The notes beneath the pieces were generated by a model. The model was not told the origin of the DNA, made no database searches, and saw nothing but the letters and a program-made list of their open reading frames with translations. A program made the translations under genes and the position numbers. Positions 18,767 through 63,194 of a DNA stretch of 64,000 nucleotides are shown one piece after another (the first letter of the stretch is position 1; every line of letters begins with the position of its first letter). The DNA is from Porpolomopsis calyptriformis (lineage: Eukaryota > Basidiomycota > Agaricomycetes > Agaricales > Hygrophoraceae): NCBI GenBank assembly GCA_951640195.1, contig OX621170.1:744001-808000 (forward strand), written 5' to 3'.

Positions 18767-21367
18767 TCATCCGTAGTCCATTGGGACATCAGGTATCTCT
18801 GATGTACTATCAATATGTTCCTGAAATGAAGCTGGCTCAGGTTCAGGTATCAGCGAGCCAAGTGAAACTTGCTTGCTATCACTGCCTAGCAGCGCAGCGC
18901 TGTCTTGTGAATCGCACTGTGAACAGCGTTGTGAAGTGCGGGACAAGTCCCAGTCATGAGGTGGTCCATGCTTAGCAAGCGTGTACATAGTTAGTCCATG
19001 CTGAGTGAACAAGTTAGATGCATCAAACACATCTTGGGTGATAAGGCCTGCGGATGGGGTGACAGACTCGTCATTAGATGAGATATGAGACTGGGGACAT
19101 TGGCGAGGATGTCCGTCTGGGAACCATGTGTCATTTCCATCACGAAGTGACAAAGGAACGCCATTCCTTGCCAATGTATTACACACAGACTCTCTGTACA
19201 TCTTGAGGGAGGATAAGTCCAAGACATTACCCTGGAGGGTATCCTCGAGCCACTGAAAGGCATAGACAAAGGCATTGTCCGCCTGTTCAAATGTCACACC
19301 TTGTCTGGTGAAGAACAGAACAAGGGATTGTTCCATGACATTGGATGATCTAGAGTACCGGGCTGGTTCTCTGGTGGGTTCCGCAATGGACAGGTTCAAT
19401 CCCATCACAAGTGAGTGATAGCGGCCAGGCATTCCAAACAGGAGGGCCGCCGCTCTGATGTATTGTGACTATATCTGGTCGGTGTCTGTCGATGATCCAG
19501 TGGGAGCACGGGTCTTAGGCGACTTTGGTTTGTGTTGACTAACCAGAAGCATCCCATGGAGGCTTTGCAGCAAAATGCTGCCATCTTGTTCTAAGTACAC
19601 TCCAGGGTGCGCGGCATGGCAGTTTATGTAGAACCAACATGCCCACTCTTCTGGGGAGCTCATGGCGGTTGGCTGAGATGGGTTAATCCATCCAGGCACA
19701 GAAGAAGTCGGCACCTGTACAGGTGCATCAGTGGAGTCACCTGAAGCCCAGGTGGGAACTCTCCAATTGATTAACACAATGCATTGAGTGTCCATTCTGC
19801 TCTCTCGAGGAGTTGCCTGCACTGTTGTGACGAATGATCGCGCAAGTTCGAGAGCCTTGTTATTGCCCAATTCTTGGGCTTGAATGAACAGAGTGTGCTA
19901 TTGGCGTGCGTTGACTGGGTATCCACGGTCATCTGCAGATCAAGTTCCATGCGGAGGGGGTAATCCCATCGCTTCATTTCGTCGCGCTGCTTCAGCACTT
20001 GCGCCAACCTGGATAGTCTAGTCAATGGGTGAGTAATGGGCCCCAGCAGGGATGCTGGGCCAAGCAGTAATGGTCGAGCCCTTCTTGCGCTTCTTGATTA
20101 TCTCACCACTAGGGCCAGATTGATTATTCACTCCCAGATCTGGGAGGTTTGGGAACTCGACATACGAGGTAGGTTGAAGGTGAGCCTTCAGTTCCTCATT
20201 CTCTCAAATGATTTGAGGAAAGTGTCTCTTGATGTACGCATTATCCTCCTTGTCAAGGTCTTTGAATATTGGGCCACAGCTGTTAGACGGCAGTCTAGGG
20301 TTGATTGCAAGGTTTTACTTCAGGCTCTGGGTGTAGGGTTTTAAAGGGTTGGAAGACTACTAATTGGGGTGTTAACGAAAGAAACAGACTTATCCTAAGT
20401 CTATCTACTGCTAGCTTTATATACTAGCCAAGTATGAGTCATGCTGACTACATGTGAGTCGTAATGACTATGGATGAGTTATGTAGATAAGGAGAGTGAT
20501 GGTAGACTAAATATAGATATGGCTTGGTCACCTTCTATTACTAAGCGGAGCTTGGGTGGCTAAGCGGCTATTGATGTAAACTGTCTGATGTAAATAGGAA
20601 TAGACGAGCAAAGGAAAAAGAAAAAATATATCTCTGACAACAGCCCACTAACTTGTCATCCAAGTATGGATCGAAGTGTTCCATATTGGCTCTTCGTCGA
20701 GCCTCCTCATCGGTTTCTTTTCTCTTGCCCTTGTGTATTCTGACGATCGCGAATGCGATCCCTCGGTATGGGAGTGCTTGCGCTTTCCTAGTGATTCAGC
20801 TTCACTAGTGTCATTAGACTTATTCAGCTTGGCTATAAGCTGATTAGCTTGATAGAGCTCATCTTGAGTGTGTTCATAATGAGCGCAATAGTAGTCACCA
20901 TCATGTTGAGCCTCCTCAAGTGAGATGGTTAGGTTTCGGATCTCTGTGATGAGTTCCTCTTGGTGTGCCTTGCGGCAGTCCTCGAATGCCTCTTTCAACG
21001 AGGCGTCTTCATACACACTGTCTTCGACGACATGCATTACATAGTCTTTGCAGACTTTACACCTCCGGTGACTGGAGTGTATCGCGACGTTGATGGTGCT
21101 GTTACACACCCATGTTTTCAGGGGTAACTCTGATGAGTTACTTGTGTTTTGTTGAGAGCAGTGCTCTCTCTCCCCTTCAGAAGAGGGCCCACACTGTGTC
21201 TGGCACGGGGGTCTGATAACTTCATTGGGACCAGCCATTAGCTGATCCCCATTGTCTTCTACCATTTCCAGTGGTCTCGGGTCTACAGGGAGGGGGCTTG
21301 CTCTTACGCTTGTGGGTGTGTTGTTTTCGTTCGACATCGTCATACTGGGTAGAAAAACTTCTACCAT
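18767..21367 (-). pseudogene. large post-pol ORF of gypsy family 1, copy B
   Basis: This is the homologue of 5600-7885 in copy A: ATG at 21367, coiled-coil-like segment near 20870-20960, and a conserved C-terminal half down to the stop at 18767. It is broken by a 43-nt deletion near 20726 between 8-bp direct repeats that both survive in copy A, by the 359-bp solo LTR at 20281-20639, and by a few stops. Apart from these it is more open than copy A: 18767-19432 alone is 221 codons. The function is unknown. Confidence 0.75.
20281..20639 (-). repeat. solo LTR of the D family inside the post-pol ORF of copy B
   Basis: It is 359 bp, exactly the length of the LTRs of chromovirus D, with TGTTAG/CTAACA-type ends. 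It is flanked by perfect 5-bp duplications ACAGC (20276-20280, 20640-20644). Copy A shows the empty site near 6370. It is the product of LTR-LTR recombination after insertion. Confidence 0.95.
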
Positions 21368-25105: not shown

Positions 25106-25684
25106 CTAGGATAAGTCCTTGTCGGAGATGGCAGTCGACAGGGAAATAATGTTGGCCAGGGAAGTAATGTCGTTGTCGGGGATGGTGATGGGGTTCGACA
25201 ATGAACTGGGGGGAACGATGAGTGGACCTGGGAAAACAGGGGGAGCGGGGGAATCGAGATGAGGAAGTACCTTTGTGATTTCCTCGTGTTTTGCTTCCCA
25301 ATGCTTGGCCTGTTCCCGCCAGTATTTGCTTGTTCTTCTTTCTCCATCCAGACTCAACCACTGACCGTACAGTTCTTCATTTAACCTCGCAATCTCGCTC
25401 TTATAGTAATCGATGTCCTTTTTCAACGACTCAATAATCTGCTTGGGTGGGATGGGTGGTGCGACTATCTCTTCAGGCCATATGGCGAGGTCCCGGTTTC
25501 GTGCGCATCGGTCGTGTTGCCAGAGTTGTCTGGCGAGCTTGGCTTCACCATAAGCGGATGAGGTGGAAGCGAGGGGAGGGGGAGCGCGATGAGGGGGTTG
25601 TCCTCCTGTGGACATATGGGGAGCATGGGGTGGACAACCACCAGTGGACTTGCGAGCAGTTTGGTGAGAGCGTTCAGCGGGCAT
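25106..25684 (-). CDS. post-pol ORF of chromovirus C with a histone H3-tail-like N-terminus
   Basis: An open frame of 192 codons lies between the chromodomain end (25807) and the 3' LTR. Residues 8-16 are QTARKSTGG, identical to histone H3 residues 5-13, which include Lys9. A loose second STGG follows at about residue 25. The middle is Pro/His-rich; residues about 80-145 (IIESLKKDIDYYKSEIARLN and on) form a likely coiled coil; the C-terminus is Pro/Ile-rich. I see no membrane segment. Chromovirus D has a counterpart with ARKSTG at the same place. I infer a role in chromatin binding or in attracting or misleading H3K9-related factors; there is no other evidence. The frame is intact while gag and pol are broken. 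Confidence 0.7.
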   Translation of the reverse strand: MPAERSHQTARKSTGGCPPHAPHMSTGGQPPHRAPPPLASTSSAYGEAKLARQLWQHDRCARNRDLAIWPEEIVAPPIPPKQIIESLKKDIDYYKSEIARLNEELYGQWLSLDGERRTSKYWREQAKHWEAKHEEITKVLPHLDSPAPPVFPGPLIVPPSSLSNPITIPDNDITSLANIISLSTAISDKDLS

Positions 25685-25806
25685 AGCGATGTTGATTCTG
25701 AGGGGAAAGATGGAGGCGAAAGAGGTTATAAGGATGAGTTGGAGTTTGGAAAAGGTGATGAAAGTGAAAAATTCAAAAGAGGGGAGTTGATACTGTGAAA
25801 GAGTGG

Positions 25807-28800
25807 TTAGGTCACCGTTTGAATTGATCGTTCATATTCTAGAATTCGTTCTTTCGCATGAGAAAGGTTCTTCTTCAGCTCCCAAGTTGCTTCTTCAATA
25901 GGATAGCTGACCCATTTGACCAAATATGTGCAACGTCGGGTAGACCCATGATATTGGAGAATTTGTTCGACCTCGTATTCTTCCTTTTCTTGAATGATAT
26001 CTGGAGGTGGGCGGAGATTATTGTCCACTTCTTCTGGATGGAGATTGGAGTTAATGTTAGTGGGTCTCAGGAGTAAAACATGAAAGACGTTGTGTATTTT
26101 CCATGATAAGGGGAGGGCCAGGCGATAAGAGAGTCTTCCGATTCTTTCTAGAATTTTGAATGGTCCAGTGCATCAGACATCGAGTTTGAGGGTTGGACGA
26201 CCTGTTTTTAAGTTACAGGTATCAAGGTAAACGAATTGACCTATTTGGAGTTGGGTATCTTTCCATTTGCGATCTGCGAAGTGCTTCATGGTCTCAGCTG
26301 TTGCTTCTAGAGCTTTTGAGGCTTTTTCTCGGGCTTCTGTGAGATGATCATGGAAGGCGTCTGCTGTGGGATTGGAAGTAGAAGTCATAGGGATGGATGG
26401 GATGAAGGGATGTTGGCCAGTATCAAGATAAAAGGGAGTGTGTTTTGTCGAGGAGTGTTGTCGGTTGTTGTACGCGAATTCAGCTGGAGATAGCCAGTTG
26501 GACCAATCGTCTTGCATAAAGTTAGTATATAAATGAAGGTATTGTTCAAGTTCTTGATTGGTGCGTTCCGTTTGACCATTGGTTTGGGGATGATAAGTGG
26601 TAGATAAACCAGAGATGATTCCCAAATGAGTGTTGAGAGCTTTCGCGAATTTGGAAGCAAATTGAGTTCCTCGATCGGTTATGATCTTCTTTGGCCAGCC
26701 ATGGTGTTTCCATACATTGTCCCTAAAGAGTTTTGCGACTCCTTCTGCTGAAATGTTTGAAGTCGTCAGGATGAAGTGAGCGCATTTAGTAAAGTGATCA
26801 ACAATGACTAGAACAGCATCGTAACCAGATGATTGGGGGAGTTCCACGATTAGATCGGCGGTGATTTCTTCCCAAGGTTGAGACGAAGGGGGAATGGGTT
26901 CCAGAAGACCTGCAGGCTTTGAGGGATAAAGCTTGACTTGTTGGCAGGTCAGACAGGATGATACGAATACACGGATATCAGGGGCAGCACTACTCCAGGT
27001 GTAGTTCCGCAACACAAGCTCACGTGTCTTCTCGATTCCGGGATGGCCTCCATGGGGTAGGGAGTGGGTCAATCAAATTATCTCTGTGTGTAGCGATACA
27101 TCTGCTGGCATGACAATATGATCTCCTGCATCTCTCACAATTCTGTCAGTGAAGGAGTAGCCAGAAGAGGGATTGGATAATTTGATGCGAATGTCCTCCA
27201 GGATTTGATTGAAGTCGGAGAAACAAAGTCTTGATATGAAAGAGGGTTTGGACATGGAAATGATAGCATTGATGAAATGTTCGGGAGGAAGGAGGGCTTG
27301 ACCTTCTAGTTCTTCTTTTTCTGTTCGGTGGTGATCGGGTCAGCGAGAGAGTCCATCGGCTTTGTTTTTGACTCCAGGGGAATACTCGATATTGAAGTCG
27401 AATCTGCCTAAGAATTCCATCCAATGTGCTTGTCATCTGGAGAGGGATCTGTTCTGCATGAAATACTTGAGCCCTAAATTGTCCGTTTTTATCAACACAG
27501 TATCCCTTGCGCCTTCTAAAAGATAGCGCCAGTACTTGAGGGAAGTGATAATTGCAAGCATTTCCAGATCGTGGGTAGGATAGTTGTACTCGGCAGGGAG
27601 TAAGGATTTTGAGAAAAAGCTGACAGGGTGCCAACCATTGTCATGTTTCTGGGATAAGACTGCGCCAATACTGAAATCAGAGGCATCAGTCTCCAAGAGA
27701 TAAGGAAGGTCTGGCCGGGGAGTGAGAAGGACAGGGGCTGTGGTGATGAGGTGTTTGAGTTGTTCAAAGGCTTTTTGACACAAGGGAGACCAATCCCAAG
27801 GTTGGTCTTTCCGCAAAAGGCCACAGAGAGGATGAACCACTGAGGAGAAACTTTTGATATAGCGGCGCCAAAAGTTGGTGGTGCCAAGGAATGATTGGAG
27901 ATCTTGCAACTTCTGGGGTATTGGCCAATTGATGATGGCGTCCACCTTCTTTGGGTTGATAACGAGTTGACCTTTACCGATAATTGTTCCAAGGTAGGTA
28001 ACAGAGGTCTTCTCCATTTGACACTTGACAGGTTTGGCAGATAATTGATTCTTCTCCATGAGTTTGAGGGTTTCGTCGGTCCAGTGGCGAATTTCTTCAG
28101 GGGTGTCACCCATGATAAGAATGTCGTCGATATAGATGTGAACACAGCCAGAGTCCAAAACAGGTTTGAAAAGAACATCTATCATTTGTTGGAAGGTTGC
28201 TGGGGAATTCCGTAGTCCAAAGAACATAACGGTTGGTTCAAAGAGTCCTCGATTGGTGATGAAAGATGCTTTCCATTCATTGCCTTCCTTGAGTCGTATG
28301 TTGTTAAATCCCCATTGGATGTCGATAACTGTGAAAAGAGAAGCAGTAGCAAGCTTCGGTACTTGGAGGATTTCCGACAAAAGGGGAAGGGGGTAGCGAT
28401 CAGGAATAGTCCTTGAGTTGATGTAGCGATAGTCTTGGATGGGATGTAGACCAGCACTGAGACCTTTAGCGTTGATCTCTTCGGCCTTTTTCACAAAGAA
28501 GAAAGGGGCAGCTTGAGGTGACTTTGATGGACGTATTTGACCTGTTCGGAGATTCCCATCAATAAACTTGTTAAGTTCCACCTGTTCATAGGGGGAAAGG
28601 GGATAGAGTTTTCTGACTTGAAATTTGGTGTTCAGGTAGAGGTTGATCGCATGATCAAAGGGACGTCGAGGAGGGAGTTTGTCGAATTCTGCGGTATAGA
28701 AAACACACCAGAAATTATGATAATGACTGGGAATGAAGGATTTGATATCCTCCTCGATGGAAACTGGTCGGGAGTAGTCAACTCCAACCAAGCGAATAAA

Positions 28801-29400
28801 GGAGTCATGTTTCAGACTCGAATCAAAGACGTAGAGTTCTTCCTGTGGGGGCAACACTCTGACTCACATACTACTAAACAGCGTGTCACCAGATGCAAAA
28901 GTTAAGGTGCCTTTTGTCCAGTTGATGGTGGGGTTGTGTTGCAAGAGCCATGGGAAGCCAAGGATGACCTGTTGTTTTCTTCCTAAGTTGGTGACCTCCA
29001 ACCGGATTCGTTCTCAAAAAGATAAGTCTGGTGCCTCGATAAACAGGTCTGTATCATGCATGATAGGACCTCCTCAGTTCTCGGAACCATCAGCATTTTG
29101 TACCAGTATAACCTCATCCAACAGATAGGTTGATATCTCCATTTGACGAACAAACGCTTCGTCAATAAAATTCCCTGAGGCGCCAGAGTCAATGAGTGCT
29201 ATAATAGCCACTCATCAAAGATTGTTGGCACTCGTAATCCAAAGATAAAATTTGAGAGCGCCTTTGCCCTGTTCAAGTGTGCCAAGAAAATGAAAACTTT
29301 TCATAGATGATGGTACACATACATGGGACACAGCCAGAGTACTTGGGCTTTCAGCACTTGACCGGACTAAAAATCCTTTTGCTCTTTTAACGCTCAAGCT
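25807..29400 (-). pseudogene. pol: pol of chromovirus C: protease, RT, RNase H, integrase, chromodomain
   Basis: One frame holds protease (IIALIDSGASGNFID near 29190), RT (474 codons open at 27433-28857, with YIDDILIMG near 28115), RNase H (LLETDASDFSIGAVLSQ near 27690), the integrase zinc region (HGGHPGIEKTRE near 27050), a DDE core (ADLIVELP; TDRGTQF near 26670; QTERTNQELEQ near 26560, catalytic Glu present) and a C-terminal chromodomain (CTYLVKWVSYPIEEATWEL, 25860-25930). In-frame stops lie near 29215 (TGA), 29010, 28858, 27430, 27070 and 26170. The chromodomain would steer integration to chromatin carrying methylated H3. Confidence 0.95.
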
Positions 29401-30963: not shown

Positions 30964-30975
30964 AAGTTCAATTCT
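30964..30975 (-). other. self-primer binding site of chromovirus C
   Basis: Read on the element strand, AGAATTGAACTT follows the 5' LTR without a gap. It is complementary at 11 of 12 positions to AAGTTCAATTCC in the 3' LTR copy and at 10 of 12 in the 5' LTR copy (31067-31078), where only transitions differ. That stretch starts about 30 bp after the TATA box at 31101-31110, where the mRNA 5' end should be. This is the layout of Tf1-type self-priming; see also D and F. Confidence 0.8.
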
Positions 30976-31343
30976 TGTTATGATTCGGTAGTCGAAGGCT
31001 TTACTTCTCGCATTGGTGGGGCTGATGAAGAAATGGAATTCGACTAAAGAGTGAGGGAGTTAACTAGGAATCGAACTTAACCTACTGACTAGAGATCAGG
31101 CTTTATATACTAACTACCTGAGTCAGCATGAGTCAGTCGTATGGATGATTACAAAGCGGAATACGGAATGTGACTTGTGAAGAGTCACGAAAAGAATAAT
31201 AGAAACGGAATGTGACTCATGAAGAGTTGGAAAGAAGGTACATGTGACTAGTCTCTATATATAAAGCAGTAAAGTGGGAGGATAAATGGAATAAGGACTA
31301 ATCAAGTATGACTAAAAGAAAAAAAGAAAAAGTATCTGTGACA
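30976..31343 (-). repeat. 5' LTR of chromovirus C
   Basis: 368 bp. On the element strand it starts TGTCACAG and contains a TATA box TATATAAAG (31101-31109 on the reverse) about 30 bp before the putative transcript start. This is the promoter LTR. Confidence 0.95.
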
Positions 31344-36661: not shown

Positions 36662-36807
36662 TACTAAAATCTAGAAAAGATGATATTTTAACTTATAAGT
36701 GAAGACTGTTATAATATGTTTGGTTCCAAAAGTGACCTATGGATCATGTGAGTGTTGAACAGTAACAAACAAACCCAAACAACTAGTTGAACTTGACCAC
36801 TATCATC

Positions 36808-37824
36808 ATGAAAAGCCTTTCTACTGCTGACTGCAATTACATCCTCTCCCTTGTTGATTCTGGTTATTCTGGTCACCAAATCTCAGACATAACTGGTGCT
36901 TCCAATGCTACCATCTCCAGACTACGCTCCAGACATTGCCCTTATCTCCACAAACCTTCTGGAGGACATCCTTCAAAGCTTTCTACCCCTAATATCCGCT
37001 ATGCAATTTGTCTGATTGGCTCTGGGAAGGTTGAAAATGCTGTGGAAGTTACCCAAATGCTTAGGAATGTTACCAACCAACCTCTCTCTTCCAAAACTGT
37101 TCGAAATGGCTTGAAAGAAGTGGGGATAAAGGCTGTGGTGAAGAAGAAAAGACCTTTACTCACTAAGAGGCATAGGAAGGAGAGAATGGACTTTGCTTTG
37201 AGGCATCAAGATTGGACCATAGAGGACTGGAAGAAGGTAGTGTGGTCAGATGAAACCAAAATCAATCGCTTGGGGTCAGATGGTAGGAAATGGGTATGGA
37301 AAAAGCCAGGGGAGGGTTTGAGTAATAGGCTAGTAGAGGGGACAAAGAAGTTTGGAGGTGGTTCTCTCATGATGTGGGGCTGCATGGCTTGGGAAGGGAT
37401 TGGGTATGCTTGCAAGATTGATGGAATAATGGATGGAGACCTCTATGTCAAGATTCTGGAGGAGGAGCTTCAACAAACTATCCAATTCTATGACAAGACC
37501 CCAGAAGACTTTATCTTCCAACAAGACAATGACTCCAAACATACCTGCAAGAAGGCTCAAAAATGGTTGAAGGATCATGGATATGAAGTCCTCTTGTGGC
37601 CTGCCCAATCCCCTGATCTCAATCCTATTGAGTATCTCTGGAGTCACTTGAAAAGGAGGTTGGCTGACTATGAGGTACCCCCTAATGGAATTGTGGAGTT
37701 GTGGGAGAGGGTACAAGTAGAGTGGGATAAAATAGGAGTGGAGGTGTGTCAGAAACTCATAGAGAGTATGCCTAGATGTGTAGAAGCTGTATTGAAGGCT
37801 AAGGGAGGCTATACTAAGTACTAA
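36808..37824 (+). CDS. Tc1/mariner transposase, DD34E, apparently intact
   Basis: 338 residues from the ATG at 36808, a normal length for the family. An N-terminal helix-turn-helix region (residues about 5-60, with GYSGHQISDITGASNATISR) and a second one (about 60-110) bind the inverted repeats. The catalytic core has Asp148 (VVWSDETKIN), Asp240 (FIFQQDNDSKHT) and Glu275 (SPDLNPIEYLW); 34 residues separate the last two, hence DD34E. There is no stop or frameshift and no intron. It cuts and pastes the element into TA sites. Expression cannot be judged. Confidence 0.97.
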   Translation: MKSLSTADCNYILSLVDSGYSGHQISDITGASNATISRLRSRHCPYLHKPSGGHPSKLSTPNIRYAICLIGSGKVENAVEVTQMLRNVTNQPLSSKTVRNGLKEVGIKAVVKKKRPLLTKRHRKERMDFALRHQDWTIEDWKKVVWSDETKINRLGSDGRKWVWKKPGEGLSNRLVEGTKKFGGGSLMMWGCMAWEGIGYACKIDGIMDGDLYVKILEEELQQTIQFYDKTPEDFIFQQDNDSKHTCKKAQKWLKDHGYEVLLWPAQSPDLNPIEYLWSHLKRRLADYEVPPNGIVELWERVQVEWDKIGVEVCQKLIESMPRCVEAVLKAKGGYTKY

Positions 37825-54200: not shown

Positions 54201-54861
54201 CGAGAACATTCCTCCACTCACCAATCCCCCTTCTGGCTTGAATATGGCTGACACCCTCACACCCCCTTATCAGTTCCAACCCAAACCTCAAATCCCGATG
54301 CCAACGAGTTTTACGTGCAGCTCACTAGGGCTAGAGAGAATGCTGAAGAGTCTCTCCAAAAGACTGCTAACTCAATGAAGTTCTATGCCGATCGAAAATG
54401 TCAAAAGGAACCCACATTTTATGAAGGACAAAGGGTCTGGCTTGATGCCAAGAATTTGAAAACTGGCCGGCCCGCGAAGAAACTGGATGTCCGCCGGCTC
54501 GGACCTTTTATAATCCTAAAACAAGTATCGCCTGTGGCTTACCGACTAAAGCTACCACTGTTATGGAGGATTCATCCCATGTTTCACGTTTCACTACTCA
54601 AGGCTCTAGAAGAGAATCTCAATCTCCACCCCCCGATTGGAGAAGATGACAATCTCCGACCACCTCCGGATGTGATCGAAGGAGAGCCCGAGTATGAAGT
54701 GGAACGTATTCTCAATCACACCCCAGGAAAACGGAACTGACAATACCTAATCAAGTGGAAAGGCTACCCGATAGAGGCAGCCACCTGGGAACCACGATGG
54801 AGCCTCAAGCATGCAAAAGACATCTTAATGAATTATGAAAAGTCTATTCAAGCAGTGATTT
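51246..54861 (+). pseudogene. pol: pol of chromovirus D: protease, RT, RNase H, integrase, chromodomain
   Basis: One frame throughout. Protease: ASALIDSGASGCFIN (about 51450). RT: RYLNAHTIPDTYPLPLISEI and YIDDILIMG (about 52518). RNase H: LLEMDASGVALGAVLTQ (about 52950). Integrase: HPGIEKTKE zinc region (about 53620), ADLIVELP, TDRGTQF (about 53985), and QTKRTNQELEQ (about 54090), where the catalytic Glu is Lys. Chromodomain: QYLIKWKGYPIEAATWEPRW (about 54742-54800). Stops at 51609, 51639, 51981, 52575, 53148, 53178, 54159, 54249 and 54738; all but 53178 (TAG) are TGA. Confidence 0.95.
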
Positions 54862-55267
54862 AACTCTCTTTCACAAATACTACCGACATCACGATCGTTG
54901 AGCCTCTTTTTCTCCTTTTCAATCTCCGACGATTATAAGGACTTCCCCTTCCCAACAATCATCAAAAGAAGCACGAAATGCCCCGCCAAGTTCTTTATGC
55001 TCGCAAGTCGACTGGGAGGCATCCACCTTGAGGGAACCCCACTGCTTCTACCTCCAACCTTCCCCCTGACTCCTCTTCCTCCTCTTCCTCGTCTGACAGC
55101 GTCTTGGTTACCCGATGGTTCAAGAAGCCGAGACGACGCACCGATACTATCGACAAGCCGGGACGAAATCGTAACTACCGAGGGCTCCCCTTTGCCAAGG
55201 TCGAGCACCTATCTGGGTGCCCCGAAACCTACGTCCCTTTTATCTCTGGAGCACGTCGATATGAACT

Positions 55268-55767
55268 TATTGCTGTTTGCACATATTATGGCGGTTGCCT
55301 ATTTGGGCACAAATATGCGTAATTCGCCCTCAAACTTACAACCATTATAACTCATGAATGGATGATCCAAATCACTCCATTCCAGGTGCGCTTTGATTGC
55401 ATTCAGACAGGCTACAGTTCTGACAGAGAATATATTCATTTTTGGCCTTAGATCTTTTTTGAAAATTCCAAGGTGAACACATCAGAAGTTCCTTATAACT
55501 CATGAATGCGCTGTTCAAATCCCTCAAAAGTGAGTAAATCTTTCGCGCATTTACTTATTCTATGATGCTGACAGACAGGATTTACTTTCTGACAGAGCTG
55601 AAAACTTGCACGCAACATCCCCCCATCCAACACACACTCAATCACTTTGTGATTGTAGCCGCTGAATCTGCAGCTTGGGTCAGTCAAAACTTGGCCAATT
55701 TATTGGCCCTCATCACGGTTACCTAATAACCCATGAAATGCAATACTTGGTGCGTGGTTTATTTCAT
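55268..55767. repeat. left 500-bp terminal inverted repeat
   Basis: Contains three copies of a TAACYCATGAA motif (about 55349, 55496, 55728), possibly binding sites. Pairs with 61656-62155. Confidence 0.9.
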
Positions 55768-56159
55768 CAACAATGTAGCTAAATCTGATTTAACACACTT
55801 AATTCTCTAGCTCGTCTTCCCTCCCTTGTCTTCCCGCAATCACTGACTCAAAATGCACAGGGAACTCACTTGAGCCTGTGTGAATAATACTGCCATAGCA
55901 CCTGGTTCCCTTTCACCAAAGGGATGCCAAAGGGATGCTTACTTTCGGTCCAGAATGCTATCGCTCTTAAGCAATAAACAAATTTGATTTCAAGGCAGTC
56001 ATTTGTGTGCTTTCATTCAGCCTGTCCCTTTTACTCATTCATTGTATTCTCTACCATGTAATCAGAAACACCATTCAATTTACTACTGAATTGACTGTAC
56101 TACAACTGGGGCTTAGGTAATATTTTGATTTCAGATGAGTAGATGATGACAACTTTCAG
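55768..56159. other. region between the left inverted repeat and the transposase exons
   Basis: No clear coding frame; it should hold the promoter and the first small exon of the transposase gene. An intron-like TTTCAG end at 56154-56159 precedes the first recognisable exon. Confidence 0.4.
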
Positions 56160-57325
56160 ATGACCTTCGATGGGTCATCATTCGCATGCGGCGTGCTCTT
56201 TCGATCCCTGAGATCATGCGCTATACTGGGGTGAAAAGGAGGACAATCGAACGAATCCTTTCTACCCATAAACACACTGGGGATGTTATCGCTCATCATC
56301 ACCGCTCTCTTGCAGGAAGAAACCATATTCTTGATGACAATGACCTCAATGTAAGGAAATTTTCAATCTTATTGTATACTTAACTCACATCTATTTCTAT
56401 TTCAGTTCATTTCAGGTATGATTGCCCATAGCCCAGACATATATCTCGATGAGCTTCAACAAGCGTTGGATGTAAATCACAGTGTGAAAGTATCCTGTTC
56501 AACCCTTTGGCATGAATTGACATGGAATGGGTTCTCTATGAAGAAGGGAAGAAGCTATATTTTCTAGCTCCTGGACTGATTCAACATATAAAACCTGCAG
56601 GTTACCAAGGTTGCTATTGAACGTAACGAGGACTGACAGAATAAGTACATATACACAGTGGGCTTGTCATTCACGCCCGACCAGCTTGTGTTCATTAATG
56701 AAAGTGCATTCGACCGCCGAGCCATATCTCGTGGATATGCCTGGGCACTGCTTGGACGACGTGCCATTTGCAAGGTCTTCTTCGAGGAAGACGGTTAGTT
56801 ATCTATTTTTTGTATTCTCTAAACAGGCTAATTATGAATTTCAGCTATTCCATTCTGCCGGCCATCTCTCTTGATGGTGTGCTCGCTTGTAACATTGTAG
56901 AAGGGTCGTTCAATGCCCCTCGCTTCAAGGATTTTGTTGCGGGCCTCCTCAATGAAATGAACCCATTCCCCAGCCCCAAATCTGTTATCGTAATAGACAA
57001 CTGTCGCATCCATCGAACAGCAGGGATTTCAGAGATGATCGAAGCACGGTAAGTATTCGAACTGGCTTCATTCTTGTTTCTCATGGCTCCAATGTCTAGC
57101 GGCATGAAAGTAATCTACCTCCCACCCTATTCTCCCAACTTCAACCCCATTGAACTTGCATTCTCAGCAATCAAGAATAACGTGAAGCGGCATGGTAATA
57201 TTGCCCGTGCAGCTGTTCAGGATGAGGATGATTTGGATGTTTACTTATTTCTGTACCGCGCCATTTTCAGTATCACCCCAAGTCATATCTTGGGTTTTTA
57301 CCGGCATTGTGGATATGTACAATAG
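56160..57325 (+). pseudogene. IS630/Tc1-like DDE transposase gene with introns, catalytic Asp lost
   Basis: Exons: DLRWVIIRMRRALSIPEIMR helix-turn-helix part (56160-56351); GMIAHSPDIYLDELQQALDV (from about 56407); VTKVAIERNEDRQNKY and LVFINESAFDRRAISRGYAW (56600-56790); ILPAISLDGVLACNIVEGSF and SVIVIDNCRIHRTAG (56845-57048); VIYLPPYSPNFNPIELAFSA (57100-57170). Introns with GT-AG ends lie near 56351-56406, 56793-56844 and 57049-57099. The second Asp (DNCRIH) and the Glu (NPIE) are 34 residues apart after splicing, so DD34E. The first catalytic Asp is Asn (INESAF), and stops stand near 56565-56600. The protein would not be active. Confidence 0.8.
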
Positions 57326-57469
57326 ATTGTTCATACTGTTTTTGTTCTAGTAGTGTTCGGACTTGTAATAATAAGACACCTCACACTAGTGGCAGTCTGA
57401 CAATGACAAGCTTACTCATCAACCTTGACATAATTACTCTGAAATTTCCTGATGCGAAAACCCATTCCA

Positions 57470-58990
57470 TCAACCCCCGACGGCGGCAAGACCAAGGTCC
57501 CAAGCTTCCTGTCTCTCAGCTCTCACTGTGAGCTCCAACGTTACACCTTGCTCCTTGAACATTGCATGAGTGCCTTCCCTCCCCCACTAGTAACTAAGCC
57601 AGATAACTGAAGAGTGTGCACTGATGTAGAAGCTGGTGTATGCAATCCACCGAGTGCATCCATGTTAAGAACCTCGATGATCGAATCACATGCAGCTGTT
57701 ACCGCAGTCACATGTTAATACAGTTATGATTAGTTTTTGCAACTCTCACCTTGCAAGCTTTCCATCACCGATAATGCAAATGTCTCTGTCACAGTAGCAC
57801 CTGTCCGGAGTTGATCCTACTCCGACACAAACGTGGCATAACTTGGAACGGTGTAGTCACTCCCAGTGCTGGCCTCCACCTCTTCCAGTTGATACTCGTC
57901 TTCGTAGCCTTCCTCTTCCAGTTGATACTTGTCTTCGTAGCCTTCCTCTTCCGGTTGCCCTATCAAAGGGTTAAGCTCCTTGCTGATAAATTTCAGACTG
58001 CACTGGAATGAGGCCAGTGCGTATTCTTCTAGCGTGTCACACATGAATGACGTAGACAATGCTTACTGATGTAACCAACTTCTAGCAAGTCGAGCATCTG
58101 CTTTTGGACACTGGAAAAAAAGTGTTAGATGGACCAAGGCCAATAGAAGAAGAAAAACCCACTTTGGATCTTCTTCCATTACTTTTGCGGCATATCAAAT
58201 AAGCATGCACAAGGCCATTGGATTTTTCAAGGTTATTCCGGCACCAGATTTGTCCCCACCAAGCTGCTGAATCATCTTTGTGCCAGCCATTCGATCCTGC
58301 TGATGAATAAAGTAAAGGAGGCTGAGAGCATGGTATTGTGTGATATAGCTGGTTGAGGGAATAGTCTGTTGACCATTATGGGCTTGCGATGAAGCCCCAA
58401 AACCAAGGTAAGAGCTTCCAGTGTTGGCGCCAAAGAAAGACAAGCCAGATTTCGCATTGATGGCTTCCTGGGCCTCATTCACCCAGCATTTGACCACATC
58501 CTTTGCTACAGGGAAGAGATGAGGAGTGCGGCTGATGAGATTGAGGGATTGCGATCAACAATGGTGGCCTTAAAGAACTGTTCCACACCTTGCGCCATAG
58601 ACAGCTTGAATAATTTTAGACTTGGTTTGATCGTGTCATGAGAGAGAAAAGAGAATGTTTGCATACATCTACAATCCTGCCGAATGGCGTTGGGTCTGTA
58701 AATAACTTCAGAATTGGGCTGTATGTCATCCTCAGCAGTGGTTGTGAGTTCTTTGATGGCTATCTGCCGCAATGCACTCTGCAAGGAAAAGGTAACCTTC
58801 AGGCTATGCGCAAGAGAATTGGGAGGCCTTACATCTTGTCCTAGTCGTTCCAAAGAACAGCGTTGTCGCCTCTTGTGTTCCGAGGGTTTCACCAATGTAA
58901 ATCAAGTAAATCACCTGCGTCAGAAGCTGTCACTTATATATCAATTTGTACGGTGCAGCATGTTGAATGCTAGTAAAAAGGATAAGGGAG
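57470..58990 (-). pseudogene. coatomer gamma subunit (gamma-COP) gene copy, internally deleted
   Basis: On the - strand: VIYLIYIGETLGTQEATTLF (about 58900), IYRPNAIR (about 58690), VEQFFKATIVDRNPSISSAA (58530-58600), VVKCWVNEAQEAINAKSG, SYITQYHALSLLYFIHQQDR, KMIQQLGGDKSGAGITLKNP and MALCMLIRYAAKVMEEDPKV (58180-58500), QKQMLDLLE (about 58090). Then, after a large internal gap, come EEYALASFQCSLKFISKELN, EEEGYEDEYQLEEVEA and VPSYATF (57840-58030), and the C-terminal part VLNMDALGG, VHTLQLSGLVTSGGG, QGVTLELTVRAERQEA to the stop at 57470. Gamma-COP is part of the COPI coat for Golgi-to-ER transport. Stops and the deletion make this a dead copy; a 33-bp unit coding EEEGYED is duplicated. Confidence 0.85.
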
Positions 58991-59079
58991 GAACTGGCTG
59001 TGCGCGTTCACATTCTGGGGTATCTGTGCAAGGCAAAACAACAGTTAGATACTGAGAAATTAATGTACTCGCGCCCGCT

Positions 59080-60749
59080 TTCATCCACCCCTTGCATCCT
59101 GTTCCAGCCTATTGATATCTTCCTGAACGAAATTGAGAAGACATTTTGCAGTACCCTTCTTCATTCCAGGGCATACGTCACACAATTCAGAGTTGACGAG
59201 ACCGTTTAAATCATTGAGACGAAGAAAATTTTCTTCCCTCAATGGTTGGGCCCATTGTTCATAATGTTGAGCATCTCAGCCGCGGGTTGGATGTTGATCG
59301 AGAGCTGTGAGCCATTCTGGAATGGTGGGGTAATTGATATTGGATACGTCGGAACCATCATCAGAGCTGCGTGACCGGATGGAAGGTACTGCAGGCAACA
59401 TACCAGGGTCATGGAGATACATGGGCATTCGTTGCAGGGGTAAGGTACGACTCTGCATGAGCATATTCTGTGCCAGCATGAATCCGAGCATCCATTGATT
59501 TCCACCATCAGGATAAACCGGTGGAATGGAAGCCGGAGGTGGAATCATCATGCCTGGAGGGACGATAGTGGCTGGGGGTGGGACAACAGCTGCAGAGGGG
59601 GCAAGATGGGATGTGGCTGGCTGCTCAACATCCAAGGGGGCCTTTGACCATGAGGGATCTGCAAAATTGAGTTTTTGTGGAGGTTGGTCAACCTGCGCAA
59701 GATTTTGGGACTAATGTACACGATATTAGCAAGAGAAAAAAAATATTGACTGGACACTCACGCATAGATGTGCCCAAATGGCGTAATCCTCCATGGTTGG
59801 ATTGACGTGCTGGCCATTCATGACAACCACGCATACGCGTTCATGGGCATTACAGTAATTGGCTTGCTTGATCTTCTCAATGATCTTGTATTGTTTCTCC
59901 TCTTCGCAGTCTATTGGAGCAGGGGCTGCAGGGGCAGACTTAGTTTTATTAGATCCCTATCCACAGCAATAGATATCAATTCATTTGTGAAATAAATGAA
60001 TAATTAAGGCATACCTTGGCCTCGGCTTCAACTTTCGACAACTCATAGAGCTGGATCATCCATGGTTTGACTACACCCTTTCCACCCTTCTTGGCCTTTT
60101 ACTCAGCCTCGTAATCTCGGATCTCTTTGACAAGCATTTGGAAGTCGTCAGGGCCATCGAGAATTTTCTTCACAGGTTTTGACCAACTGGTTGAGCACCA
60201 CGATGGTGTATAGCATAATTTCGGGATGGAAATATGGGAGCATCCCATTACCCCAGCAATCTTGACAACAACCTGGGGCCATGGGATGTTTGAGGGGATA
60301 CTGATGGAACGTGTTACGGGACCAAGCGGGACGAGAAACTCGATGTCGATAGCCTTGCCTTGAGCTGTAATGAGGGTGGGGGGAGGGGTGATCTCTATGG
60401 TATCCTCTGTCTCAATAAGTAAGCAATAAAATGTGTAAAGAAATGGAATGACAATACCATTCTCATAAGTAACTGAGAGCGGGTCATCATCATCTTCATC
60501 CTCTTCCTCCTCCGCAACATTAGACAATGCAGCACTATCTTGGAATCTCTGAGTGGATGGTATACCACCCATCATAACCAATGCATCAACTGCGTCTTGC
60601 TTGATGGCCTGGACCGCACCCCGATATGCAGGTCGTGGTCTTGGCCTTTTGGTCTTGACCTTGGGTTGTACTTCTTCCGGTTCAGCGGACAAGCGAGCTG
60701 CACAGGCAGCTGATGTATCCCGCTTCGCAGATGCCTTGGGCTGACCCAT
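59080..60749 (-). pseudogene. uncharacterised gene with acidic tract and SAM-like C-terminus
   Basis: Start ATG 60749 (MGQPKASAKRDTSAACAARL). A basic stretch (KVKTKRPRPRPAYRG), an acidic run (EEEEDEDDDD, about 60490), a GT-AG intron near 60410-60460, then FLVPLGPVTRSISIPSNIPW and KILDGPDDFQMLVKEIRDYE (60110-60340). Later exons: KQYKIIEKIKQANYCNAHER (about 59860), a Pro/Met-rich part (59400-59635) and PTIPEWLTALDQHPTRG ... LRLNDL ... KGTAKCLLNFVQEDI (59090-59330), which looks like a SAM-type helical bundle. A stop interrupts after DYEAE and another after HPTRG. I recognise the pattern as a basidiomycete family without known function. It belongs to the cargo of the TIR element. Confidence 0.55.
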
Positions 60750-60774
60750 TTGAGTTGAGGAAATGGGTTTTCGC

Positions 60775-61540
60775 TTATATAATTCCCCAAATGCAAAAAC
60801 AATAATATTTACATTTTATATTCATTTCTAAGCTGATGCAATTATCCAGAGGATTCACTATAAGTGCGGCAAACGTGAGTGTCACAATTTCAAGTTCTGT
60901 GGTTGGCAACCCTTCGACACCGCGAGTGATACACTGAAGTATGAACCAACTTGTTTGGAGTAGCACCACAGCTTTCGACAGTATGTCGCCTTTGCTTTTA
61001 TCTTTGATTTCCTCCTCGGTGATTTCGATCTCGTGGCTTTCTAGATAGGGACCTAGCTCCTCCGGTTTGAGTGTGTGAACAGGTTGGTCACCGTCGTAGA
61101 GCACGAAACCACCCATGATAGCAAAAAATCCATGGGTTCATGTCCAACACGTTGTCACTGCTGTCAACAATGGAAACTTGACTGGAGGACAAAAAAGATA
61201 CACCTTGGTATTGCTTTGCGTATCCACTGGCAGCCAACCACTGCTGCATGGCCAGTGTGACAATAAGTTCTGGTGCAATTACCGCAAGTGCCATGACACT
61301 AATACGACACTTCGTTCTGGTAAAAAATGAATCATTTGGGCCAGGGATGTTCATATGGAGTGTGACCCAAGTGAGCGCTAACACTGTCGTCAAACAGCTC
61401 TGGATGATGTTCCAAACGGCATGACTTTGCTTGGGATCATTGCAGTGGTCAGCGGAGGAATGCGTGTCAATGAATTGAGTGACAGGGAGAGGTTGGGCAT
61501 ATTGGGTGAAGATGAAGAGAGCAATGAGAAAGGCGAACAT
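60775..61540 (-). pseudogene. fungal membrane protein gene of unknown function
   Basis: Start ATG 61540 with a hydrophobic, signal-like N-terminus (MFAFLIALFIFTQYAQPLP), then IIQSCLTTVLALTWVTLHMN, NIPGPNDSFF and a second hydrophobic segment ISVMALAVIAPELIVTLAMQ. After a probable intron near 61150-61195: THGFFAIMGGFVLYDGD, ITEEEIKDKSKGDILSKAVV, LLQTSWFILQCITRGVEGLP and TELEIVTLTFAAL. The segment order fits a multi-copy agaricomycete membrane protein family. A TGA (about 61133) stands in place of a codon before THGFF, so this copy is probably broken. It lies inside the TIR element next to the right inverted repeat. Confidence 0.65.
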
Positions 61541-61655
61541 GGCAACTTGAGGCTATACTGTGGATGTGTGCATTATATAGATTCAGGACCCTGTGAATCC
61601 ATTGGAAAATGAACTAAAGGAGGGAAATCTTCGATGAGATATAGATATCTATAGT

Positions 61656-62155
61656 ATGAAATAAATCACGCACTGAGTATTGCATTTCATGGGTTATTGG
61701 GTAACCGTGATGAGGGCCAATAAATTGGCCAAGTTTTGACTGACCCAAGCTGCAGATTCAGCGGCTACAATCACAAAGTGATTGAGCGCGCGTCAGATGG
61801 GGGGATGTTGCGTGCAAGTTTTCAGCTCTGTCAGAAAGTAAATCCTGTCAGTCAGCATCATAGAATAAGTAAATGCACGAAAGATTTACTCACTTTTGAG
61901 GGATTTGAACAGCGCATTCATGAGTTATAAGGAACTTCCGATGTGTTCACCTTGGAATTTTCAAAAAAGATCTAAGGCAAAAAATGAATATATTCTCTGT
62001 CAGAACTGTAGCCTGTCTGAATGCAATCAAAGCGCACCCGGAATGGAGTGATTTGGATCATCCGTTCATGAGTTATAACGGTTGTAAGTTTGAGGGCGAA
62101 TTACACATATTTGTGCCCAAATAGGCAACCGCCATAATATGTGCAAACAGCAATA
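61656..62155. repeat. right 500-bp terminal inverted repeat
   Basis: Reverse counterpart of 55268-55767 and of the same length. Ends ...CAGCAATA before ACT. Confidence 0.9.
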
Positions 62156-62835
62156 ACTACGACCATCACTGGTACACGTTCGACAAGGACAGCGACTTTG
62201 ACGACAAGAAGAATCAACTTGAAGATTGGCTGGAGGCGTACTAAGTTGGGCGCCAACTTTTGATGGTTATACTGGACCAGGATGAATCCGACGTCACCAC
62301 CCCCACTATCCCCGAAGACCCCATCTCGCACTGCATCCATCGCGTCACCGACCGACTCTATGCTGCCCAGAACGGGTACCGCTCGATGATGGATGCCAAG
62401 TACAAAAGGATCCTTGACCTGGAGGAGAATGCTGTGATGTGTAGGGAGCTGGCTGAAACTTGGTTGCAACGTGCCCGGGAGTTGGATGGTCGTTACCACT
62501 GGTTTGACCCAGATGGACACCTGCTTCAACCCCCAGTTTATGATGGCACGACCTAGGGACCGGATGCTGTTCCCAAATGAACAGTATTCCTTATGCCTCC
62601 CTTCTGGATGTGTGGTTAGAGAAGGTGATATCTACTGGAGAGTTGAGGAAAAGTATACCTAGTGGATAGTCTTTGATCCGACAACTATCCACTCATCCCT
62701 CCTCTTCATCGCTCACCCATCTCATCACCCCTCTACCCACCTCTACCATCCCTTTACACCTCTCCTTGACACCCTTCCTTCGCTTTGAAGGGTCTTCTCA
62801 AAATTCGGGACGAATTTCCTTTTTGTGGAGGTGAA

Positions 62836-63194
62836 TGTTAGAGATATATTTTTTCTTTTTCCTTTGCTCGTCTATCTCTATTTACATCAGACAGTTTACA
62901 TCAATAACCGCTTAGCCACCCAAGCTCCGCTTAGTAATAGAAGGTGACCAAGCCATATCTATATTTAGTCTACCATCACTCTCCTTATCTACATGACTCA
63001 TCCATAGTTGTTACGACTCACACGTAGTCAGCATAACTCATACTTGGCTAGTATATAAAGCTAGCAGTAGATAGACTTAGGATAAGTCTGTTTCTTTCGT
63101 TAACACCCCAATCAGTAGTCTTCCAACCCTTTAAAACCCTACACCCAGAGCCTGAAGTAAAACCTTGCGATCAACCCTAGACTGCTGTCTAACA
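62836..63194 (+). repeat. 3' LTR of chromovirus D
   Basis: 359 bp, nearly identical to 49340-49698. The preceding purine-rich end GTGGAGGTGAA (62825-62835) is the probable plus-strand primer, and the stretch before it (GGGACGAATTTCC) is similar to the one next to the 3' LTR of chromovirus C. Confidence 0.95.

What the first reader, a model, noticed from the sequence alone, without database searches (positions are those of the whole stretch)
25106..25684. Histone H3-tail mimic at the N-terminus of a retrotransposon's extra ORF
The post-pol ORF of chromovirus C has QTARKSTGG at residues 8-16, identical to nine residues of histone H3 (5-13), including Lys9, the H3K9 methylation site. The same element encodes a chromodomain, a module known to bind methylated H3 tails. 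A protein offering an H3K9-like tail could recruit or titrate silencing factors, or tether the element's own integrase. The ORF is open although gag and pol of the same copy are broken.
Basis: partly seen in the sequence, partly recalled or inferred. Interest (0 to 1): 0.88.

Follow-up and report, generated by a model that had tools for sequence, protein, structure and literature searches.

The report
Retrotransposon protein with a histone-like tail
A fungal retrotransposon carries an extra gene whose protein begins with a near copy of the tip of histone H3 that cells use to mark silent DNA, and evolution has kept that tip in many copies and in a second element family, so the element probably interferes with, or hooks onto, the cell's gene-silencing system.

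Summary
The minus-strand ORF 25684-25106, between the pol chromodomain and the 3' LTR of a Ty3/Gypsy chromovirus (family C), starts MPAERSHQTARKSTGG, matching H3 residues 5-13. It is not chance: ARKSTGG codons occur 70 times in the genome, 2 reversed; 67 lie in family C, 3 in H3 genes. Of 72 aligned copies 70 keep the K9 equivalent. In 46 stop-free copies TARKST shows 0 nonsynonymous and 18 synonymous non-CpG changes, against 159:295 elsewhere; over all nine codons the signal is weak.
Several mushroom-forming fungi have uncharacterised proteins with 3-4 such tails; a similar one, from an unnamed contig, shares QTARKSTGGRPPRA with family C.
Most likely: a selected H3K9-tail mimic on a helical accessory protein, engaging H3K9 methyltransferase and chromodomains. 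Decoy or tether is undecided; methylation and binding are untested. Against generality: 9 of 150 top chromodomains have the tail pattern downstream.

The parts
25106..25684 (-). Family C accessory (post-pol) ORF, 192 aa: H3-like tail, disordered linker, long helix
   Evidence: AlphaFold2 on the single sequence gives residues 1-43 without structure and helix 80-142 (mean pLDDT 56.7, ten-residue blocks over the helix 70-94)
25637..25663 (-). Codons for QTARKSTGG (residues 8-16; Lys12 = H3K9 equivalent at 25649-25651)
25259..25447 (-). Predicted long helix, possibly a coiled coil (residues 80-142)
   Evidence: residues 88-159 of copy L012 match the tail-less ORF of family E, BLASTP E 2e-10 without composition correction; E 2e-6
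25726..25730 (-). TATAA 46 nt upstream of the ORF's ATG; found at -45 to -49 in 36 of 37 copies examined
25828..25977 (-). Chromodomain of family C integrase, Y/W/Y cage positions kept
   Evidence: Pfam Chromo; PDB chromodomains of HP1, MPP8, Clr4, SUV39H1 and others matched
26173..27072 (-). Family C integrase core (H2C2, rve); stop before the chromodomain
27433..28857 (-). Family C reverse transcriptase and RNase H segment
24653..25024 (-). 3' LTR of the family C element
   Evidence: 95.4% over 372 bp to the other LTR
30973..31343 (-). 5' LTR of the family C element
54978..55268 (+). Family D accessory ORF, first part: MPRQVLYARKSTGRHPP (a stop follows in this copy) and continuation; tail codons ARKSTG at 54999-55016
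62107..62553 (+). Family D accessory ORF, second part (residues 66-212 of the comparison piece), separated from the first by about 6.8 kb
   Evidence: C8:806107-806553
54690..54845 (+). Family D chromodomain (approximate limits; a stop lies inside in this copy)
   Evidence: the same domain in copy L051, Pfam Chromo 57.3 bits
49340..49639 (+). LTR-like repeat, probably the 5' LTR of the family D element; second copy at 62836-63135 (98%)

Best explanation
The ORF encodes a trans-acting accessory protein of a chromodomain retrotransposon that displays a histone H3K9-like tail. The N-terminal 43 residues are a flexible arm with the sequence read by H3K9 methyltransferases and by chromodomains; the C-terminal half holds a long helix that probably oligomerises and so shows several tails at once. 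A TATA box just upstream suggests its own short transcript rather than translation with gag-pol. Proposed working: the host's SUV39/Clr4/DIM-5-type enzyme methylates Lys12; the methylated tails then occupy chromodomains, host HP1-like readers and/or the element's own chromointegrase. I favour the decoy form (drawing writer and reader away from the element's chromatin, i.e. anti-silencing; about 0.35) over the tether form (holding or steering the element's own chromodomain integrase; about 0.25). Shown: the tail, its spread, its conservation, the chromodomain, the upstream TATA, one Pre-SET methyltransferase candidate in the genome. Inferred: oligomerisation, separate transcript, methylation, binding, effect.
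For: Motif far above chance (70 against 2). Tail kept across 72 aligned copies: Lys12 70 of 72, Thr14 72 of 72. 0 N:18 S non-CpG changes in TARKST in 46 stop-free copies against 159:295 elsewhere, Fisher p = 0.0005; in all 72 copies 7:36 against 437:650, p = 0.0008; internal branches alone 0:9 (p = 0.023) and 1:17 (p = 0.003). Second family D, 66% identical in RT and 62-69% in integrase, has ARKSTG at the same place while its body shows no detectable similarity; its codon form has 49 genome hits against 0 control, all 49 at the start of a family D ORF match. C's helix region is homologous to a tail-less ORF of family E, which has no Chromo hit, so the tail behaves as a module. TATAA at -45 to -49 in 36 of 37 copies of C; in D at about -44 (D counted by eye). 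Pre-SET match at C14:899559. Related tails, mostly 3-4 per protein, in Agaricomycete and unnamed-contig proteins.
Against: No biochemical or expression data. Over the full nine codons the test is weaker: p = 0.04 in the 46 copies and p = 0.22 in all 72. The core 9-14 was partly chosen after seeing the data, and related copies make the p-values approximate. Other six-codon windows of the ORF also have zero nonsynonymous changes in the 46 copies (starts 77, 97, 122), and with all 72 copies the tail is not among the eight lowest windows listed, so it is not uniquely constrained. Of 150 best chromodomains 9 have a tail pattern downstream. The mimic lacks K4 and has R-P for K14-A15. The search for HP1 (chromo shadow) was empty but uninformative, since nothing rang in the controls either.
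Confidence: 0.6

Rival explanations
1. Tether: the methylated tail binds the element's own chromointegrase, holding integrase on a multivalent scaffold or steering it, rather than acting on host silencing.
For: C and D each encode both a tail and a chromodomain with Y/W/Y cage positions (cage read by eye); family E shows neither. MAGGY's chromodomain binds H3K9me2/3 and its loss lowers transposition (passages of PMC3350952).
Against: 134 of the 150 best chromodomains belong to elements other than family D and none of these has a tail pattern or 31 downstream. A tail would compete with genomic H3K9me for integrase.
Confidence: 0.25
2. Self-limitation: the tail recruits H3K9 methyltransferase and HP1 to the element or its protein, so the element silences itself or targets heterochromatin and harms the host less.
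For: Same anatomy; copies show CpG-type decay (R to C/H/stop), consistent with DNA methylation and silencing of copies (inference).
Against: No DNA-binding family was found in the ORF (Pfam) to direct recruitment; decay of silenced copies needs no such factor.
Confidence: 0.1
3. The stretch is conserved for another job, such as a nuclear localisation or AT-hook-like basic motif (ARK, GGRPPR), and the identity to H3 is convergence without H3-type recognition.
For: C and D share RPP after the tail (D in copy L051), and GRP resembles an AT-hook core (recalled); Pro18 and Pro19 are kept in 70 and 72 of 72. Other parts of the ORF are as constrained.
Against: Nine consecutive residues equal H3; TARKST is among the cleanest stretches in the stop-free copies; fungal proteins with several tails vary after the GG but mostly keep TARK[ST]TGG.
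Confidence: 0.15
4. Passive passenger: a stretch of H3 or of a multi-tail host gene was captured recently and hitch-hikes without function.
For: One host H3 gene has a micro-exon for nearly just this stretch, and some TE copies (L012, L019) match another H3 gene at 26 of 27 bases.
Against: Synonymous divergence without amino-acid change over the core; presence in two families with bodies not detectably related.
Confidence: 0.08

Closest known systems
Fungal Ty3/Gypsy chromoviruses (MAGGY, Tcn1-type), some with an additional ORF of unknown function (passages of PMC2864245)
   Same: pol with integrase and C-terminal chromodomain, LTRs, extra ORF
   Different: Extra ORF here starts with an H3K9-like tail; no such tail is mentioned in the passages seen
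H3K9-type histone mimics (WIZ, LIG1 and others, passages of PMC10611923; viral NS1 recalled)
   Same: Short linear motif like the H3K9 context
   Different: Encoded by a retrotransposon that has its own chromodomain; nine residues identical to H3. The disputed case of SARS-CoV-2 ORF8 shows that an ARKS motif alone can mislead (passages of PMC10833455)
Multi-tail proteins: P0007 Daedalea DAEQUDRAFT_482210, P0009, P0015 and P0093 Armillaria, P0010 Peniophora PENSPDRAFT_749582, P0011 Heterobasidion HETIRDRAFT_318391; P0001-P0005 and P0008 from unnamed contigs
   Same: TARK[ST]-type H3 tails; P0001 shares QTARKSTGGRPPRA with family C, P0007 shares LYARKSTG with family D
   Different: 3-4 tails per protein (2 in P0008); the four named ones scanned, P0007 and P0009-P0011, reach no Pfam cut-off. 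No such gene was found in this genome: the P0001 search rang 32 places, each at a family C place when read against by eye; a gene split by introns could be missed
VANC anti-silencing proteins of VANDAL transposons (start of abstract of PMC10398659 in the listing)
   Same: A separate protein of a mobile element working against silencing, if the decoy reading holds
   Different: VANC is described there as sequence-specific; no histone-like tail is mentioned in the text seen

Membership tests
Ty3/Gypsy chromovirus | RT, RNase H, integrase and LTRs | tested here: met
Ty3/Gypsy chromovirus | C-terminal chromodomain with Y24/W45/Y48-type cage (group I) | tested here: met
   Pfam Chromo; cage positions read by eye from the alignment; cage definition from passages of PMC3350952
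H3K9-type histone mimic | Sequence match to the K9 context (TARKST) | tested here: met
H3K9-type histone mimic | Match under selection | tested here: met
   TARKST core: p = 0.0005 and 0.0008; all nine codons: p = 0.04 and 0.22
H3K9-type histone mimic | Accessible, flexible segment | tested here: inconclusive
   Residues 1-43 of low confidence and without structure in a single-sequence AlphaFold2 model
H3K9-type histone mimic | Lysine methylated by an H3K9 enzyme and bound by a chromodomain | not testable with these tools
   Only a Pre-SET match was located
Histone H3 (whole protein) | Histone fold | tested here: not met
   No histone family in Pfam for the ORF at E <= 1
Multi-tail proteins | Two or more H3-like tails in one chain | tested here: not met
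   One full tail plus a partial MSTGG repeat at residues 24-28

The most novel reading that the evidence does not exclude
Mushroom-forming fungi have a family of proteins that display histone H3K9 tails away from nucleosomes, host versions with 3-4 tails and retrotransposon versions with one tail on a helical scaffold, forming a soluble layer of the H3K9 writer/reader system over which elements and hosts compete. Tail modules have moved between unrelated protein bodies, perhaps between host genes and elements.
Probability: 0.35. Interest if true: 0.92.

Novelty: new variant of a known kind. Interest (0 to 1): 0.8.

Why it matters
Chromodomain retrotransposons are known to read H3K9 methylation. 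An element that also makes its own soluble H3K9-like tail would be a new way for a mobile element to act on the silencing system, and it is directly testable with peptides, a methyltransferase and chromodomains. The multi-tail proteins of other mushrooms suggest that the same device may be used by hosts.

Tried and rejected
Protein search with the window ORF alone found no relative at E <= 0.001; an alignment of 12 copies found three at E <= 1, one of them below 0.001. Viral-contig and prokaryote-genome scans with the alignment gave no relatives. I considered that every chromodomain element carries the tail and rejected it (9 of 150 by the exact patterns, 16 of 150 family D). These are lower bounds for the tail, since only the patterns were used; one search lists one more ARKSTG hit beside a family D chromodomain (C5:248688). 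I considered splicing of the ORF from a longer RNA: the window copy has CAG before the ATG, but other copies do not keep it, so an own promoter is preferred. Origin from the H3 micro-exon alone is weakened by the match to P0001 running past the exon end. A multi-tail host gene in this genome was sought and not found. Ten literature searches showed, in the 8-25 papers listed for each, no title or abstract start reporting a transposon-encoded H3 tail or multi-H3-tail fungal proteins; some matched hundreds of papers or more that were not listed, and only the held open-access library was searched. Passages were read of PMC3350952, PMC10611923, PMC10833455 and PMC2864245.

Dropped before the selection test on 46: 26 copies. 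The 37 copies are those with at least 120 bases of upstream sequence, a match from residue 1 and at least 60% identity. The protein search scored 7961 candidates, had 1550 at E <= 1 and listed 120. Of family D the window copy, L051 and a partial copy L057 were read as letters, 17 of 131 rows have no stop inside and a 243-residue open frame, so copies open through the window copy's stop exist. 93 of the 131 rows cover at least 210 codons.

Full report
What is there. The ORF is real and on the minus strand (25684 to 25106, 192 aa). It sits in the last stretch of a Ty3/Gypsy element, after the integrase chromodomain and before the 3' LTR; the LTRs are 95.4% identical over 372 bp. It begins MPAERSHQTARKSTGG; residues 8-16 equal H3 5-13. 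In this copy RT, integrase and chromodomain are separated by breaks. Another copy, L054, has a 1088-residue open pol with RT, RNase H, integrase and Chromo domain and an open ORF with the tail.

More than chance. The codon pattern for ARKSTGG occurs 70 times in the 33.5 Mb genome, 2 times when reversed. Checked against the family matches, 67 of 70 lie in this ORF family; the other 3 are host histone H3 genes.

Conservation. I aligned 72 copies. Counts at the motif: Q 70 of 71; T 72, A 66, R 59, K 70, S 71, T 72, G 66 and G 65 of 72. The 13 losses at R11 (H 7, C 5, Y 1) are consistent with CpG decay of CGC. The codons vary silently: GCT/GCC, AAG/AAA, TCT/TCC/TCA, ACT/ACC. On a FastTree tree with parsimony changes and CpG changes set aside, TARKST has 0 nonsynonymous and 18 synonymous changes in the 46 stop-free copies, the rest of the ORF 159:295 (p = 0.0005); in all 72 copies 7:36 against 437:650 (p = 0.0008). 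Over all nine codons the result is weaker: 3:18 against 156:295, p = 0.04; 18:36 against 426:650, p = 0.22. In the 46 copies three other stretches (windows from 77, 97 and 122) are as clean, and with all 72 copies the tail is not among the eight lowest windows. A first version of the test had a midpoint root that fell on a decayed copy and was replaced. So the core is under purifying selection, as is much of the ORF.

A second family. A looser pattern, ARKSTG, gave 125 hits against 14, which led to window 54978: the post-pol ORF of another chromovirus begins MPRQVLYARKSTGRHPP, then a stop in this copy. A codon form special to it occurs 49 times against 0, all 49 at the start of a family D ORF match. 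Copy L051 reads MPRQVLYARKSTGRRPP. In one search, 17 of 131 rows have no stop inside and a 243-residue open frame that runs through that stop. RT is 66% and integrase 62-69% identical between C and D, the integrase end with chromodomain 55%; the ORF bodies show no detectable similarity. A third family, E, has no Chromo hit in 617 residues of pol and an ORF without tail whose helix region is homologous to C's.

Relatives elsewhere. Searching with the C alignment found three proteins, the best at E 3e-5 and the others at 0.08 and 0.15, each with 3-4 H3-like tails. Searching with those gave 1550 proteins at E <= 1, of which 120 were listed, nearly all with histone-fold domains. Twelve of the 120 carry no Pfam domain and have several tails: P0001-P0005, P0007-P0011, P0015, P0093 (tail counts: 2 in P0008, 3 or 4 in the others). 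The named ones come from Daedalea, Armillaria, Peniophora and Heterobasidion; P0001-P0005 and P0008 have no name. P0001 shares 14 residues with C and P0003 13; H3 shares 9. P0006 and P0017 look H3-derived and are not counted. Whether the multi-tail proteins are host genes or parts of elements is unknown.

How it may work. AlphaFold2 on the single sequence gives an unstructured arm 1-43 and a helix 80-142 (low overall confidence). TATAA stands 45-49 nt before the ATG in 36 of 37 copies. The genome has one Pre-SET match, the domain of SUV39/Clr4-type enzymes (the link is recalled). The chromodomain resembles those of HP1, MPP8, Clr4 and SUV39H1. From established knowledge (recalled), H3K9 enzymes and HP1 chromodomains contact residues around T6-T11, the stretch kept here. 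The parsimonious reading is a selected H3K9 mimic that engages writer and reader proteins; decoy and tether cannot be told apart from sequence.

Against over-reading. Of the 150 best-scoring chromodomains (718 candidates in the first look), 16 belong to family D elements and 9, all of them family D, have a tail pattern within 1.2 kb downstream. The other 134 belong to other elements or genes without such a pattern; the family C chromodomain of the window scores 41.6 bits, below the lowest row listed (59.7 bits), so family C is probably not among the 150. So the tail is a trait of some families. The dispute over ORF8 shows that an ARKS motif alone proves nothing (passages of PMC10833455).

Noticed in passing
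L097 (C2:3412919): One host H3 gene has a 25-nt micro-exon encoding QTARKSTG and the first base of the next Gly codon, between two introns; the other two H3 genes also have an intron right after this stretch (splice sites read by eye).
   Followed up: partly
P0001-P0005, P0007-P0011, P0015, P0093: Proteins with 2-4 dispersed H3-like tails, several from named Agaricomycetes; P0001, P0002, P0004 and P0005 share a K-A/S-E/Q-x-L-G motif after the first tail.
   Followed up: partly
L031, L034, L035, L039, L043, L046: At six loci a diverged family C 3' end (tail MPAERIQHHSQTARKSTGG in L031, L034, L035 and L039, with changes in L043 and L046) lies about 1.4 kb from the matched part of a family E ORF, as if copied as a composite.
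   Followed up: no
window 55268-62107: About 6.8 kb splits the accessory ORF of the window's family D element, probably inserted DNA.
   Followed up: no
window 20648-21367, minus strand: Another gypsy element's probable post-pol ORF, 239 aa, with no H3-like tail and no Pfam match.
   Followed up: no
window 36787-37824: Tc1/mariner-type transposase ORF, 345 aa (HTH_Tnp_Tc3_2 and DDE_3).
   Followed up: no
L037:2669-3385: Family E has a second post-pol ORF of 239 codons without Pfam match.
   Followed up: no
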